Source: an uncultured Methylococcaceae bacterium (GTDB lineage Bacteria; Pseudomonadota; Gammaproteobacteria; Methylococcales; Methylomonadaceae). Taken from it: DNA of 12,138 nt. The translations under genes and the position numbers were made by a program. The DNA lies in the NCBI GenBank assembly GCA_903839795.1, contig CAIMDR010000482.1:1-12138 (forward strand), written 5' to 3'. Below the pieces are notes generated by a model. It did not search any database. It was not told the DNA's origin and saw only the letters and a list, made by a program, of their open reading frames with translations. Below, in pieces: positions 1,223 to 6,987 of this stretch (within the stretch, counting starts at the first letter, position 1; every line of letters begins with the position of its first letter).

Positions 1223-2515
1223 ATGAGCCAACAAGATTATAAAGTCGCTGATATTGCTTTAGCAGCCTGGGGTCGTAAAGAAATCAATATTGCTGAAACA
1301 GAAATGCCGGGCTTAATGGCATTACGTGAAGAATATGGTCAGGAAAAACCGTTAAAAGGTGCCCGTATCGCAGGTTGTCTGCACATGACGATACAAACAG
1401 CTGTATTGATTGAAACCCTGACTGCTTTAGGTGCGGAAGTACGTTGGTCATCATGCAATATTTTTTCTACCCAGGATCATGCCGCGTCAGCAATGGCGGC
1501 AGCCGGTATCCCTGTTTTTGCCTGGAAAGGCGAAACTGAAGCAGAAGCTGAATGGTGTATTGTCCAGACCATTGAAGGTCCTGATGGCTGGAGACCCAAC
1601 ATGATTCTGGATGATGGCGGTGATTTAACCACCCTGATGCATAAAAACTATCCTGAATTAATGGCTGACGTTAAAGGTTTGTCTGAAGAAACCACTACCG
1701 GCGTCTTACGTTTGTATGAGATGGTGGCAAAAGGCACGTTGAAAGTCCCTGCTTTTAATGTGAACGATTCAGTGACCAAATCAAAATTTGATAACCTGTA
1801 TGGTTGCCGAGAGTCTTTGGTTGATGCAATTAAACGCGCAACGGATGTCATGATTGCCGGCAAAATAGCAGTAGTTTGCGGTTATGGCGACGTGGGTAAA
1901 GGTAGCGCCCAATCTTTGCGTGGTCTGGGTGCAATAGTATGGATTACTGAAATTGACCCCATTTGTGCTTTGCAAGCGGCAATGGAAGGTTATCGCGTAG
2001 TCACTATGGAAGAGGCGGCACCTATCGCTAATATTTTTGTGACAGCAACCGGTAACTTTGGCATTATTACCCATGAACATCTGCTGGCTATGAGGGATCA
2101 GGCAATTGTCTGTAATATTGGTCATTTTGATGCAGAAATTGAAATTGCCTCATTGCGCCAATATGAATGGGAAAATATTAAACCTCAAGTTGATCACGTC
2201 ATTTTTCCTGATGGCAAACGCTTGCTTATTTTGGCTGAAGGGCGTCTGGTGAATTTGGGTTGTGGTACAGGTCACCCCAGTTTTGTAATGTCCAATTCAT
2301 TTTGTAACCAGGTTTTGGCGCAAATAGAACTGTGGAATAATGCCGACAAGTACGAAAATAAAGTTTATATTTTGCCTAAAAATCTGGATGAAAAAGTGGC
2401 CAGATCACATCTTGCACAACTGGGCGTTAATTTGACAACCTTAACAGATGCGCAGGCCAAGTATATCAATGTTCCGGTTGAAGGCCCTTATAAAGCGGAT
2501 CATTATCGTTATTGA
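1223..2515 (+). CDS. ahcY: Adenosylhomocysteinase (S-adenosyl-L-homocysteine hydrolase)
   Basis: NAD-dependent cytosolic enzyme that splits S-adenosylhomocysteine, the inhibitory product of methyltransferases, into adenosine and homocysteine. At 430 residues it has the length of the shorter animal and bacterial form. Substrate-domain landmarks are H54-M-T56, D131 and E156, then [13 protein letters not shown] (179-191), which supplies the catalytic Lys and Asp. The Rossmann NAD motif GYGDVGKG is at 220-227, followed by the TEIDPI...ALQAAMEGY signature. The C-terminus is PYKADHYRY; its conserved Lys and Tyr reach into the NAD site of the neighbouring subunit. It lies between metK and metF, so its homocysteine product can be remethylated with methyl groups that metF provides. 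No methionine synthase gene is in the window. Confidence 0.98.
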
Positions 2516-2523
2516 TCTATCAT

Positions 2524-2549
2524 TATTCTCACGCTTCGGCTTGGGAATA
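2524..2549 (+). terminator. C(UUCG)G tetraloop hairpin after ahcY
   Basis: An 11-position stem (arms 2524-2534 and 2539-2549) closes on a TTCG loop flanked by C and G, the extra-stable cUUCGg tetraloop. The stem has one G-U pair and one C/T mismatch. It begins 8 bases after the ahcY stop codon. No U-run follows, so it may be an mRNA 3'-end or stabilising hairpin rather than a classical intrinsic terminator. The pairing is read directly; the role is inferred. Confidence 0.5.
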
Positions 2550-2556
2550 TAAAGCC

Positions 2557-2585
2557 TGTAGAGACGCAACTATTGCGTCTCTACA
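2557..2585. repeat. Perfect 13-bp-arm palindrome (GAGACGC type) between ahcY and metF
   Basis: Left arm TGTAGAGACGCAA (2557-2569) and right arm TTGCGTCTCTACA (2573-2585) are perfect reverse complements around a 3-base CTA loop. Only 7 bases separate it from the UUCG hairpin. It lacks a T-tract, so it is a poor intrinsic terminator alone. The arm resembles short GTAGAGACG palindromes that I recall as abundant intergenic repeats in cyanobacteria and some other genomes, which suggests a REP/MITE-like element. That resemblance is memory, not a search result. Confidence 0.6.
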
Positions 2586-2656
2586 TCTTGTGTCTCAAAT
2601 TATAGTAACCCAGTACGTATAGCATTCACCGTGTTACTTTCATGAAGACCTTGGAA

Positions 2657-2673
2657 AATCTACCTTGTAGATT
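2657..2673 (+). promoter_or_regulatory. Small hairpin just upstream of the metF ribosome binding site
   Basis: AATCTAC (2657-2663) pairs perfectly with GTAGATT (2667-2673) across a 3-base loop. It ends 7 bases before the GTGAGG ribosome binding site (2681-2686), which lies 5 bases before the metF ATG. It could affect translation or be incidental. I see no match to the SAH or SAM riboswitch cores that I know. Confidence 0.3.
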
Positions 2674-2691
2674 CCCGTCAGTGAGGCCAAA

Positions 2692-3537
2692 ATGCAATCA
2701 CAAAAAAAACATCCCCAGTTATTCAGTTTTGAATTTTATCCACCTAAAACAGAAGAAGGTGCGGTAAATTTACAACAAGTGCATAGCAAGCTGGCAGAGC
2801 TTAATCCCGATTTTTTTTCTGTTACCTTTGGTGCCGGTGGCTCAACCCGCGATAAAACTTTCGATACCGTTATTGATATTCAGGCAAAAGGTATCGCTGC
2901 AGCACCGCATTTATCCTGTGTTGCCTCAACCAAAGACAATATTCGTACGATTCTTAAAAACTATCAGGACAATGGCATTGCGAAAATTGTTGCCTTAAGA
3001 GGCGATTTGCCCTCCGGCATGTTGTCAGCGGGTGAATTTCGATACGCCAATGAGCTGGTCGAATTTATTCGCCAGGAAACCGGTGATTACTTTCAGATTC
3101 ATGTTGCCGCCTACCCGGAAGTGCATCCGCAATCGGTAAATGCAACAGACGATTTTAAAAACTTCAAGCGTAAAGTTGATGCCGGTGCAAATGCTGTGAT
3201 TACCCAGTATTTTTATAATGCCGAAGCGTATTTTTATTTCGTGGATAATTGTGAAAAAAACGGTATAACAATTCCTATCGTTCCCGGCATTATGCCGATT
3301 ACACAATATGCACAACTGTTCCGCTTTTCGGAAATGTGCGGCGCTGATATTCCACGCTGGATGAGAAAACGCCTGGAAAGTTTTGGTGATGACCGGGAGT
3401 CAGTTCAAGCCTTTGGTCTGGATGTGGTCAGTCATCTTTGCCAGCGTTTGTTAGACGGCGGCGCACCCGGACTGCATTTTTACACTATGAATCAAGCTGC
3501 ACCTACCTTGGCGATTTTGGAAAATCTTAAGTTTTGA
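2692..3537 (+). CDS. metF: 5,10-methylenetetrahydrofolate reductase
   Basis: FAD-dependent cytosolic enzyme that reduces 5,10-methylene-THF to 5-methyl-THF, the methyl donor for remaking methionine from homocysteine. The 281-residue single-domain protein has the usual bacterial length. FSFEFYPPKT (residues 11-20) carries the catalytic Glu (E14, equivalent to E. coli E28). The FAD/folate-site signatures SVTFGAGGSTRDKT (43-56) and LRGDLP (102-107, with the conserved Asp105) follow, then YPEVHP and PGIMPI further on. The ATG is supported by GTGAGG 5 bases upstream. A 176-bp gap holding two hairpins separates it from ahcY, so metF may have its own promoter or regulation within the one-carbon cluster. 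A protein-like antisense ORF overlaps its last 46 bases, but the MetF C-terminus looks intact. Confidence 0.97.
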   Translation: MQSQKKHPQLFSFEFYPPKTEEGAVNLQQVHSKLAELNPDFFSVTFGAGGSTRDKTFDTVIDIQAKGIAAAPHLSCVASTKDNIRTILKNYQDNGIAKIVALRGDLPSGMLSAGEFRYANELVEFIRQETGDYFQIHVAAYPEVHPQSVNATDDFKNFKRKVDAGANAVITQYFYNAEAYFYFVDNCEKNGITIPIVPGIMPITQYAQLFRFSEMCGADIPRWMRKRLESFGDDRESVQAFGLDVVSHLCQRLLDGGAPGLHFYTMNQAAPTLAILENLKF

Positions 3538-3806
3538 AGCAATACTATGGCAATATTTTCTAGCTGAAGATAGGCAATATATGGCTCACCATAATCAAAC
3601 CTCATAACAACAAGCCCGTTATCAAATCGACAAAAAGATGATTCAGGATAAAATGGACTATTTGGTATAATTGTGCGGAGAATAAACTGTCTCAAAATCC
3701 GCTGCTGGGATGAATAGGTGTTCGCCACGGTGGACTTGTATACGGGTAGATCGCTGCAACGTTCAGAAAACTCATCTTGATGGTGCAAACGTAGGAATAT
3801 GTCCAT
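3492..3806 (-). other. Possible small ORF or gene remnant, antisense, running into metF
   Basis: A 104-codon minus-strand reading frame starts at ATG (3804-3806) and stops inside the 3' end of metF. About 90 codons lie in otherwise empty sequence and read like real protein: mixed hydrophobic and charged residues, ordinary codons, and a stretch such as GLVVMRFDYGEPYIAYLQL. The last 15 or so codons are only antisense metF, which suggests the natural C-terminus was lost. I recognise no family. No strong ribosome binding site precedes the ATG. It could be a truncated remnant at the edge of the inserted cassette, a small divergent gene, or chance. A plus-strand reading of 3538-3895 gives nothing convincing. 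Confidence 0.3.
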
Positions 3807-3895: not shown

Positions 3896-4336
3896 ATGGA
3901 TGATTACAAAGGTGCTTATTTAGCAAGAAAAAAAGATGTCTCCGCTTTACCGAAGCACCATACTATAGCTATTTTTCATTTGGGAGGAATAGCAGTTGAA
4001 TGTCATTTGAAATCACTATTGTTTCGCTATCATCGAATTAGTAAGTGGAATGATAATAGTCGTCGAACTAAAGATTCAATGTACGACCAAGCAATCGCTA
4101 ACCCAAGTCATAGCCTATTAACCGCTCTTAGGCGGATGCCCGATTTTTATAAACGAGCAAGTTTGGATAAGCAGCTTTTAAAACATCTGCAAAAAATCAT
4201 TCATCCGTTGGGATCAACTGACATCGACTATATTGGCCTCCGCTATATTCCACAAACAACAGAGCCCCAAGAAGATTGGCAAAAAAGTTTTGATTATGTT
4301 TGTGGTTGGCTTGAAAAAAACGAGAAAATCATATGA
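3896..4336 (+). CDS. HEPN-like domain protein, first gene of the two-gene cassette
   Basis: A 146-residue soluble, mostly helical protein. The core HLGGIAVECHLKSLL (28-42) fits the helix of small HEPN proteins, typically written AxYLAGYAVECxLKA. The C-terminal YIGLRYIP...DWQKSFDYVCGWLE (112-140) fits the RYP-like segment and last helix. HEPN proteins act as RNases, RNA-binding subunits or toxins in toxin-antitoxin, CRISPR and abortive-infection systems. No RX4-6H catalytic motif is visible, so an inactive, adaptor or antitoxin-like role is as likely as nuclease activity. The ATG is the first available start, since an in-frame TAA lies at 3872-3874; its ribosome binding site is weak. Its TGA overlaps the next gene's ATG in ATGA, implying coupled translation and a shared function. 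The family call is pattern recognition without a search. Confidence 0.68.
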   Translation: MDDYKGAYLARKKDVSALPKHHTIAIFHLGGIAVECHLKSLLFRYHRISKWNDNSRRTKDSMYDQAIANPSHSLLTALRRMPDFYKRASLDKQLLKHLQKIIHPLGSTDIDYIGLRYIPQTTEPQEDWQKSFDYVCGWLEKNEKII

Positions 4337-6987
4337 AATCTGCGATACAACTACGCAAAGCCCTCAATCAGAAATTTCTTAAGCAATTTGAGCTTGATGT
4401 GGGGGCTGGTGGTTTTGTTCTTCTTACTATTATCTCAGAACAGTTTCAAGGACTAGCAAGACATGAACGGTTACAGCAAGTCGAACCCTTAATTGAAGAA
4501 GCTGGATTAGCGTCTGGTATTATTGAATTATACACACCAGAAGAAGCGATAAGTGACGGTATTTCTGTTCAAGCGACGATAGATAATGTACCGCCTTCAT
4601 CATGGGAAGAAGCAATTGAGATGTTATCCTCTGGCAAAAAAGTATCAGCTAAAAAACCTAAACACCCAATTAAACGCGTAGTGTTTTATTCCTATAAGGG
4701 TGGAGTTGGGCGTACTACCGCTTTAATACAAACTGCATTTCAATTGACACGTCATGGAAAGCGTGTGGTTTTAATCGATATGGATGTCGAGGCACCAGGA
4801 TTGCAAGCATTATTACCACCTACTGATACCTCAGTTGAAGAGGGTTTAATTGATTATTTATGGGAACGTCAAACCTGTTTCTTCGATGATAATCACCCAG
4901 CGAAAATCCATTTAAGTGGCAGTAATCAAGGCAAGCGCACGGGTATTGTTTACAGTATCAGCGACCCACAATCGCGCCGTGATTTATTTATAGTTCCTGC
5001 TGGAAAAATAGGGCAACGTTATATTCAGCGGTTGTCGGTTTTATCAACTGCCCACTTATTCGCAGCAACAAAAGACTCTTGGTATCAATTTGAACAAGAC
5101 CTTTGGGAACAATTTCAACCTGACATTATGCTGATTGATGCACGGACAGGATTAAATGAATGGGGTGGTTTATCTTTATTACGTCTTGCTGATGAAGCGT
5201 TTATTGTTTTATATCCTAGCGATCAAAATGCTGAAGGGGTGCGTTTTATTCGTGAGCTATTAAAAGGATTAGGGGGGGGGCAGGCTAAATTAGTCTTGTC
5301 ACCTATTCCAGAAGGAGTGATAGGCGATTCCTTAGTAAAAAGAATAAAACCTTATTTAGACTTACATGAAGGCGAAGAGCCTATTTTTATTCCCTATCAT
5401 CCAAATATTGCTGGTAGCAATCAATTTCCTGTAGAAACGGCTTTGCCTTATTACGCACCGTTAGCAAATAATCTACTTGAAATAAGTGGCGTTGAAGAGA
5501 CTGCAGTCATATTGGCAGAATCCAATCGACTGGAGTTAATCAAATCATTAAATTTTCCAGAGCGCGATGCTGCTAGTATTTTTGATACTGATTTTGATGC
5601 TAATTTTCAAAAAACAGCCGACTTTGAACGCTGTTTAGACGATCAAGTTTGGGTGATCAGAGGACGTAAAGGTACGGGAAAATCGACTTTATATACTCTT
5701 TTCACCCAGCATCGAGAAAATGCTGAAACACGTTCACGAGGACGTTTGGATAATGTCAAAATTTTTTCAGGACATGGTAACAGTAGTACCTTTAGACCAA
5801 CCGCTGATGTTTTTTCAGATATTCAAAAAAAATTGAACGCCAATAATACTGATTGGCTGTCCTTATGGCGTGCTTATGCGGTTATTCGTATATATCAAAG
5901 ATATGAACTTTTTATAGAAATACTAAGTAAAGCAAAATTAAAATCTTTGGTTTCACGTTTAACTTATAACTTCGATCCTAAAAATAATGAGCAGTGGAAT
6001 TCAACGCATACAGCTAAATTGATTGAATTTGCAACAGATACAAGCCTTAACGGCTATTGTCGTGATGCTATGACACAGCTTAATATTCATCTTAAAGAAC
6101 ATGATCAAAAAATATGGTTACTTTATGACGATTTAGATCAAGACATTCAAGAGAATAGTCCTTGGCAACAAGAAGCCTTGGGCGGTCTAATGCGTTTGGT
6201 TTATGACACTAATAATCAAAATTTTTATCAAATCCGCTTTAAAATATTTTTACGCGAAGATATTTGGAGTAATTTAGTTTTTACGAACAAAAGTCATTTT
6301 GGTGAAGAACGAACCTTAACCTTGCAATGGGGAAAAGAAGATTTCTTTCGATTGGCTTATCGTCTCGCTATCGGTGGTTCAGCACAGTTCAAAACATTTG
6401 CTAATCGTATTTTGCCTTTAGCCGACAACGAATTAGATAAAAAAGATGAGGAAGATTTACGTAAAGCCTTATCGCCGCTTTGGGGGCTACGCCAACAAAA
6501 AAGCAAAAATGCTTATGTTGCCCAATGGGTTTATTCACGCTTAACTGATTCAAGTGGTAACACTTACCCGCGTTCCTTGACTATTTTATTAAAAAAAGCT
6601 CGAGAAGTTGAACTGGCACAATTGGCACAAAGACAAGGGAAAAATGCACCGATTGATCATTTGTTACGCTGGAATTCTTTAACGGATGGATTACAAGAAG
6701 CATCGAAAGAACGTTGTGATGCCATTAGAAATGAATATCATGAACTATCCGAGTTTTTTAATAACATTAGTACATTAAAATCTTTATTCAAAGAAGAAGA
6801 ATTAAAAGAGTTTTGGCAACAAACCATAGCCAACAATCCATCACCAATACCTTATGATGTTTTTGTGAAGCGCTTAAAAGATATTGGTTTATTAGAAAGT
6901 AAAAAATATTCTCACTATGATTATGCCATTGCTAACCTCTATGTATATGGTTTCGGTATTACTCGAAAACAAGGACAACGAAAATAA
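4333..6987 (+). CDS. BolA-like / ParA-like (KGGVGRTT) / P-loop NTPase fusion protein, candidate defence ATPase
   Basis: An 884-residue multidomain protein with no signal peptide or membrane segments. Residues 1-75 resemble BolA (FVLLTIISEQFQGL...R...LYTPEEA) but lack BolA's conserved C-terminal metal-ligand His. Residues 113-385 form a MinD/ParA-type ATPase: deviant Walker A KGGVGRTT (122-129), switch DMDVEAPGL (149-157) and Walker B IMLIDARTGL (265-274). From about 405 to 760 a second NTPase has Walker A GRKGTGKST (444-452), Walker B IWLLYDDLDQ (594-603) and FLREDIW (639-645), resembling Sll1717-like/KAP/STAND ATPases. The C-terminal 120 or so residues are helical and unassigned. ATGA overlap couples it to the HEPN gene. 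I infer an ATPase sensor that controls the HEPN partner. A G9 run encodes Gly314-316. Base composition is more AT-rich than the neighbours, which suggests horizontal acquisition. Confidence 0.75.
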   Translation: MKSAIQLRKALNQKFLKQFELDVGAGGFVLLTIISEQFQGLARHERLQQVEPLIEEAGLASGIIELYTPEEAISDGISVQATIDNVPPSSWEEAIEMLSSGKKVSAKKPKHPIKRVVFYSYKGGVGRTTALIQTAFQLTRHGKRVVLIDMDVEAPGLQALLPPTDTSVEEGLIDYLWERQTCFFDDNHPAKIHLSGSNQGKRTGIVYSISDPQSRRDLFIVPAGKIGQRYIQRLSVLSTAHLFAATKDSWYQFEQDLWEQFQPDIMLIDARTGLNEWGGLSLLRLADEAFIVLYPSDQNAEGVRFIRELLKGLGGGQAKLVLSPIPEGVIGDSLVKRIKPYLDLHEGEEPIFIPYHPNIAGSNQFPVETALPYYAPLANNLLEISGVEETAVILAESNRLELIKSLNFPERDAASIFDTDFDANFQKTADFERCLDDQVWVIRGRKGTGKSTLYTLFTQHRENAETRSRGRLDNVKIFSGHGNSSTFRPTADVFSDIQKKLNANNTDWLSLWRAYAVIRIYQRYELFIEILSKAKLKSLVSRLTYNFDPKNNEQWNSTHTAKLIEFATDTSLNGYCRDAMTQLNIHLKEHDQKIWLLYDDLDQDIQENSPWQQEALGGLMRLVYDTNNQNFYQIRFKIFLREDIWSNLVFTNKSHFGEERTLTLQWGKEDFFRLAYRLAIGGSAQFKTFANRILPLADNELDKKDEEDLRKALSPLWGLRQQKSKNAYVAQWVYSRLTDSSGNTYPRSLTILLKKAREVELAQLAQRQGKNAPIDHLLRWNSLTDGLQEASKERCDAIRNEYHELSEFFNNISTLKSLFKEEELKEFWQQTIANNPSPIPYDVFVKRLKDIGLLESKKYSHYDYAIANLYVYGFGITRKQGQRK
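5272..5280 (+). repeat. G9 homopolymer inside the cassette ATPase gene
   Basis: Nine consecutive G bases, in frame as GGG GGG GGG (Gly314-316), lie near the C-terminal part of the ParA-like domain. A run this long in an AT-rich gene is unusual. Poly-G runs of this size are classic slipped-strand sites in phase-variable genes. Loss or gain of one G would truncate the protein soon after the ParA-like domain and remove the second NTPase domain. Confidence 0.9.

What the first reader, a model, noticed from the sequence alone, without database searches (positions are those of the whole stretch)
3896..6987. Candidate undescribed defence or signalling system: HEPN-like protein coupled to a BolA/ParA/P-loop fusion ATPase
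Seen: two coupled genes (ATGA overlap), visibly AT-richer than the surrounding housekeeping genes, lie between metF and bioA. The first looks like a small HEPN protein and the second carries two NTPase modules. Known: HEPN effectors paired with large STAND/KAP-type ATPases are a recurring design in abortive-infection systems, and KGGVGR ParA-like proteins recur in defence and conflict contexts. Inference: the ATPase senses a trigger and licenses or restrains the HEPN partner. I cannot name a described system with this exact pair, and I could not search to confirm that.
Basis: partly seen in the sequence, partly recalled or inferred. Interest (0 to 1): 0.8.

Follow-up and report, generated by a model that had tools for sequence, protein, structure and literature searches.

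The report
HEPN–BolA–ParA–STAND candidate defence pair
Two overlapping bacterial genes, a small HEPN-fold protein and a large three-part molecular-switch ATPase, form a conserved, patchily spread pair related to a catalogued but untested candidate anti-virus system, with an unexpected BolA-like domain at the front of the ATPase.

Summary
The genes are at 3896-4336 (146 aa) and 4333-6987 (884 aa), joined by ATGA and AT-richer than metF and bioA. The domain calls largely hold. The small protein has a HEPN-like fold. The ATPase is BolA-like + KGGVGR ParA-like + Sll1717-family STAND/ORC-like. Of 13 related genomes, 11 keep both genes together. Neighbours differ between genomes, and the cassette is missing from the metF-bioA junction in all 15 same-genus loci where both genes were read.

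It is not wholly undescribed. PADLOC lists a three-gene candidate, PDC-M28A/B/C, whose models match the small protein weakly and the two halves of the ATPase strongly. Trees put the window's fused, BolA-bearing form in a clade beside, not inside, three-gene M28. The HEPN RNase motif RX4-6H is not conserved, so 'HEPN nuclease effector' is unproven. Enrichment near defence genes was not shown.

Verdict: a new variant of a known but unvalidated kind of conflict system, most likely a STAND-type switch controlling a HEPN-fold partner.

The parts
3896..4336 (+). 146-aa HEPN-fold partner protein
4333..4336 (+). ATGA overlap of the two genes (translational coupling likely, inference)
   Evidence: sequence
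4333..6987 (+). 884-aa BolA-like / ParA-like / STAND-like ATPase
   Evidence: ORF; domains as below
4402..4545 (+). BolA-like domain core (residues 24-71; whole domain about residues 1-75)
   Evidence: hhalign against 30 BolA sequences, probability 95.8, E 8.3e-9, score 49.5; 100 column-shuffled controls reach at most 19.1; predicted a-b-b-a-b-a
4672..5256 (+). ParA/MinD-like KGGVGR module (residues 114-308)
   Evidence: NF047398 161.6 bits, cut-off 90; PDC-M28B E 1.3e-30
4696..4713 (+). KGGVGR motif; R127 in the place of the P-loop lysine
   Evidence: 48 of 48 aligned proteins
5566..6930 (+). Sll1717-family P-loop ATPase module, STAND/ORC-like fold
5662..5685 (+). Walker A (GRKGTGKS) of the second ATPase module
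   Evidence: K450 in 48 of 48
6115..6138 (+). Walker B (WLLYDDLD) of the second ATPase module
   Evidence: D600 and D602 in 48 of 48, D599 in 47 of 48
6841..6960 (+). C-terminal winged-helix-like end (tentative)
   Evidence: predicted H841-851, E854-856, E864-866, H868-874; inference

Best explanation
A two-gene conflict (probably anti-phage) module. The large protein is a STAND-type switch: its Sll1717 module binds ATP through intact Walker A/B motifs and is held inactive at rest. A trigger, perhaps an invader nucleic acid or nucleoprotein felt through the BolA-like (KH-like) front, the ParA-like platform or the C-terminal winged helix, causes ATP-dependent assembly that licenses the HEPN-fold partner. 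The partner either acts as effector through a non-canonical site or serves as a nucleotide-binding adaptor. Shown: gene pairing, domains, motif states, co-variation, purifying selection, patchy spread. Inferred: trigger, assembly, partner activity, antiviral role.
For: PADLOC PDC-M28A/B/C matches; HEPN-like fold; STAND/ORC/CED-4-like fold; intact second ATP site. In another fused clade (fusedD) the upstream partner reaches the Pfam HEPN cut-off in 2 of 4. Three-gene relatives carry partners that touch HEPN_AbiV below its cut-off in 4 of 8 scanned, L102, L106, L107, L111. One relative's M28C is fused to metallophosphoesterase and NACHT domains. Patchy distribution, 14 of 301 order genomes including its own at E <= 1e-30, different neighbours and empty metF-bioA junctions, a decayed ATPase copy with 10 in-frame stops. 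Pair distances co-vary. At least 4 of 14 context stretches hold a PADLOC-listed gene among the proteins that I picked to scan singly.
Against: No activity data. The bulk neighbour scan shows no excess of PADLOC matches: 77 models matched among 112 neighbour ORFs against 202 among 110 control ORFs. RX4-6H is not conserved, best column pair 20 of 118. The large protein has no match in 50,697 phage records, the small one none in plasmids. The window proteins have no Pfam HEPN or BolA match at E <= 1. Foldseek alone does not support HEPN at E <= 0.001 and its first row is not HEPN. The ParA part of the model is of low confidence.
Confidence: 0.57

Rival explanations
1. A toxin-antitoxin-like selfish module: the HEPN protein is toxic and the ATPase is its neutraliser, kept for addiction rather than sensing.
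For: Small gene first, overlap, patchy spread; HEPN proteins are toxins in HEPN-MNT pairs, and such toxins are among the fold matches (8xdj, 8xeh, 7ae9).
Against: The partner is an 884-aa protein with two P-loop modules and no nucleotidyltransferase match; RX4-6H of HEPN toxins is not conserved; the large protein is under stronger constraint than the small.
Confidence: 0.17
2. A stress, partitioning or metal/redox regulator: the ParA-like and BolA-like parts act in DNA segregation or Fe-S status sensing.
For: BolA and ParA homology.
Against: The two BolA histidines that I recall as conserved are not retained: at residue 47 no H in 48 (L in 40), and at residue 60 the five commonest are T, V, I, R, N, 39 of 48. 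No ParB partner was recognised by eye beside it. No match in 287 of 301 order genomes at E <= 1e-30, some of them incomplete.
Confidence: 0.15
3. The HEPN protein is a classical HEPN RNase licensed by the ATPase.
For: HEPN-like fold; densely conserved polar residues R11, D14, H28, E35, K39, H46, R57, H72, R116 in at least 113 of 118.
Against: No conserved RX4-6H.
Confidence: 0.25

Closest known systems
PDC-M28 (PADLOC phage-defence candidate; models M28A, M28B, M28C)
   Same: Small HEPN-like A, KGGVGR ParA-like B, Sll1717-like C in one order and strand; PADLOC models hit.
   Different: Three genes there, B and C fused here; BolA-like front not found in M28B; separate clades in both trees. The M28A match is weak.
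Sll1717-family P-loop ATPase (NF047389)
   Same: Second module passes the cut-off.
   Different: Of 19 unfused relatives looked at, 15 are 473-573 aa and 4 are longer; three have an N-terminal extension, deoxyribosyltransferase-like by Pfam in one, just under the cut-off. Whether they have partner genes was not examined.
STAND AP-ATPases with an extra inactive MinD/ParA-like domain (peptide-processing systems, PMC7159879, passages read)
   Same: STAND-type ATPase with a degenerate MinD/ParA-like domain.
   Different: Those are actinobacterial peptide-processing neighbourhoods; BolA does not occur in that paper's main text and HEPN only in its reference list.
HEPN-MNT toxin-antitoxin
   Same: Small HEPN next to a nucleotide-handling partner; fold matches.
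   Different: No MNT match; no conserved RX4-6H.
HEPN_AbiV (Pfam PF18728)
   Same: 4 of 8 three-gene M28A proteins scanned show sub-threshold matches.
   Different: The window protein shows none at E <= 1.

Membership tests
PDC-M28 | M28B and M28C model matches | tested here: met
   E 1.3e-30 and 1.9e-27; PADLOC's own thresholds not seen
PDC-M28 | M28A model match | tested here: inconclusive
   E 1.2e-4, 20.6 bits; hhalign probability 67.9, E 4.9e-5
PDC-M28 | three separate genes A, B, C (as in L102, L103, L105-L109) | tested here: not met
   B and C are one 884-aa protein
PDC-M28 | groups inside the three-gene clade | tested here: not met
   fused2 and M28C/M28B are each one side of a branch, 100/99 or better; root unknown, long branches flagged
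HEPN superfamily (fold) | HEPN helical fold | tested here: met
HEPN RNases | conserved RX4-6H motif | tested here: not met
   best column pair in 20 of 118; 35 of 73 have one anywhere
BolA-like | profile similarity and a-b-b-a-b-a topology | tested here: met
   hhalign 95.8, E 8.3e-9; 100 shuffles max score 19.1 against 49.5; topology (BolA's own recalled); no Pfam BolA hit at E <= 1
BolA (Fe-S partner) | conserved histidines (recalled) | tested here: not met
   no H at residue 47 in 48; H not among the five commonest at residue 60
ParA/MinD ATPases | deviant Walker A KGGxGK | tested here: not met
   KGGVGR in 48 of 48; variant family NF047398 met
STAND / ORC-like ATPases | intact Walker A/B and fold | tested here: met
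STAND / ORC-like ATPases | C-terminal sensor repeats (common in STAND proteins, recalled) | tested here: inconclusive
   no repeat family among the Pfam matches at E <= 1
anti-phage defence systems | protection in a plating assay | not testable with these tools
   needs an experiment

The most novel reading that the evidence does not exclude
A distinct two-gene immune switch in which a BolA-derived, KH-like domain serves as the sensor of a ParA-STAND ATPase, and a HEPN-fold protein with a non-RX4-6H active site is its effector: a new use for BolA and a new kind of HEPN effector chemistry.
Probability: 0.22. Interest if true: 0.78.

Novelty: new variant of a known kind. Interest (0 to 1): 0.52.

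Why it matters
If the pair defends against phages it would move a catalogued but untested group (three-gene M28 and three fused clades) from candidate to mechanism, add BolA to the domains used in immune switches, and pose a sharp question: what does a HEPN protein without the RNase motif do when a STAND ATPase activates it? The database names both proteins in Methylobacter, Crenothrix, Spirulina and Nitrospirillum, so copies from harmless organisms could be tested.

Tried and rejected
Pfam gave no HEPN or BolA hit for the window proteins at E <= 1, so family scans alone were not enough. Foldseek alone gave no E <= 0.001 for the small model and its first row is not HEPN; the HEPN claim rests on VIA-align and on relatives. 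The N-terminal region of three-gene M28B matched neither BolA nor the window's front. The window's small-protein family did not match the HEPN set directly by hhalign (probability 1.0). Partners of the fused950 clade gave no HEPN match (3 of 3 scanned without), so their HEPN nature is by eye only.

Defence-island test: 112 neighbour ORFs (of 121 drawn up; one over 1500 aa and eight of L029 that looked like false frames left out) against 110 control ORFs (of 181 drawn up, from 9 of the 20 control stretches, cut to make the sets alike) gave no excess. The alignment mode gives no per-member table and lists 25 families only, and the control evidently holds one or more restriction-type loci, so the test is inconclusive rather than negative. 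The '4 of 14' figure comes from proteins picked by hand for and is a lower bound without a matched control. Phage records: no match. Plasmids: 38 records match the large protein, 1 over at least 80% of it, at 30% identity; none the small. Viral contigs, scanned with two short patterns only: 10 loci at 26-33% identity, nine limited to the ParA-like part. Class-level sampling found only the own genome, 1 of 369 at E <= 1e-60, so reach outside the order rests on the protein database and on more distant fused forms. Insertion ends could not be fixed by eye; no repeat search was run on them. Rfam: none at gathering scores. Promoter and terminator scans at chance level.

Papers: no paper holds PDC-M28, KGGVGR or Sll1717; BolA with HEPN gave 2 papers, unrelated by their titles; one search gave 4, one of them with BolA, a cholera review by title. 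Searches listed 20 of 373 and 20 of 337, one search listed 12 of 12; none of the listed titles is about this pair, but the unlisted were not seen. The library holds open-licence papers, so preprints and subscription journals are mostly missing.

Full report
What is there. The window lies in genome G000 (748 contigs, 83% complete). The only named relative that a genome scan returned is a Candidatus Methylobacter oryzae MAG. Between metF and bioA lie a 146-aa ORF at 3896-4336 and an 884-aa ORF at 4333-6987, overlapping by ATGA. Their G+C is 0.37 against 0.43 and 0.46 for the flanking genes; yajQ, also in the window, has 0.385.

Large protein, front. Residues 24-71 align with BolA: hhalign probability 95.8, E 8.3e-9, score 49.5 against 30 BolA sequences taken from genomes by PF01722. 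One hundred column-shuffled BolA alignments reach at most 19.1, and HEPN as control gives 0.2. The predicted order is helix, strand, strand, helix, strand, helix, as in BolA (recalled). The two BolA histidines that I recall as conserved are not kept: no H at residue 47 in 48, and at residue 60 H is not among the five commonest. So it is BolA-like in descent and probably not an Fe-S partner (inference).

Large protein, middle. Residues 114-308 pass NF047398, KGGVGR-motif variant AAA ATPase (161.6 bits, cut-off 90). Arginine stands for the P-loop lysine in 48 of 48. In the fusedD clade the first lysine of the motif is also arginine (4 of 4). This suggests a structural or weakly active ParA-like part. 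PMC7159879 (passages read) describes MinD/ParA-like domains of conflict systems as predicted inactive, and an AP-ATPase with such an additional domain.

The pair as a unit. At E <= 1e-30, 14 of 301 order genomes match, the own included. Of the 13 relatives, 11 carry the small gene directly upstream; one is cut by a contig end (G266) and one is a remnant with no small gene within the stretch held (G121). In the protein database 35 contig lengths are shared between the 120 listed large and 121 listed small clusters, 21 of them over 10 kb, a proxy for co-location. For 20 such pairs plus the window, distances co-vary at r = 0.85, 0 of 9999 permutations as high. Ka/Ks against the G229 copy is 0.30 (small) and 0.09 and 0.08 (two parts of the large). 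One ATPase copy, G290, has 10 in-frame stops, while its small gene is still open.

Where it sits. metF was found in 31 of 35 genus genomes, and loci were held for 19 relatives. In 15 of these bioA follows, with about 31-725 bases between the aligned ends and no cassette; in the other 4 bioA was not in the stretch held, and neither gene of the pair was found there either. In other genomes the pair lies among different, mostly housekeeping, genes (functions judged by eye). I saw no transposase at its ends, but ran no repeat search. Among proteins that I picked by hand, 4 of 14 context stretches hold a PADLOC-listed gene: PDC-M26 beside it in L024, PDC-M07A/B in L026, AbiU-like in L022, a type I methylase in L030. 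A bulk scan of neighbours against control stretches from the same genomes showed no excess, 77 models matched against 202.

Place among known things. PADLOC models PDC-M28A, B and C hit. Three-gene A-B-C loci exist in other genomes of the phylum (L102, L103, L105-L109). Trees of both modules give four well-supported groups: the window's fused2, fusedD, fused950 and three-gene M28; none lies inside another, though the order of joining is weak, the root unknown and some long branches meet. PADLOC's PDCs are described as unpublished candidates, with validation pending for most of those in the core defensome (PMC12988326, passages read). No paper in the library names PDC-M28.

Noticed in passing
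L111:5657-9640 (+): An M28C-type ATPase fused to a metallophosphoesterase (residues 512-749) and a NACHT domain (924-1082), behind M28A-like and M28B-like genes.
   Followed up: partly
L052, L054, L055: Sll1717-family ATPases of 773-802 aa with an N-terminal extension; deoxyribosyltransferase-like by Pfam in L055 only, just under the cut-off.
   Followed up: partly
L038 about 2341-3063: The metF-bioA gap is 725 bases and holds an ORF that looks by eye like a Uma2-type nuclease; the junction may be a variable site in this genus.
   Followed up: no
L025/L011 (G290) and L016/L030 (G121): Decayed copies: one ATPase with 10 in-frame stops beside an open small gene, one remnant without the small gene.
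   Followed up: no
window 3492-3806 (-): A 104-aa reverse ORF between metF and the pair with no NCBIfam match at 1e-5 and no Pfam match better than E 0.96, possibly part of the inserted stretch.
   Followed up: partly
L116-L119: A further fused clade of 943-956 aa with the same KGGVGR and Sll1717-like modules; a small upstream ORF of unproven kind in L116, L118 and L119.
   Followed up: partly
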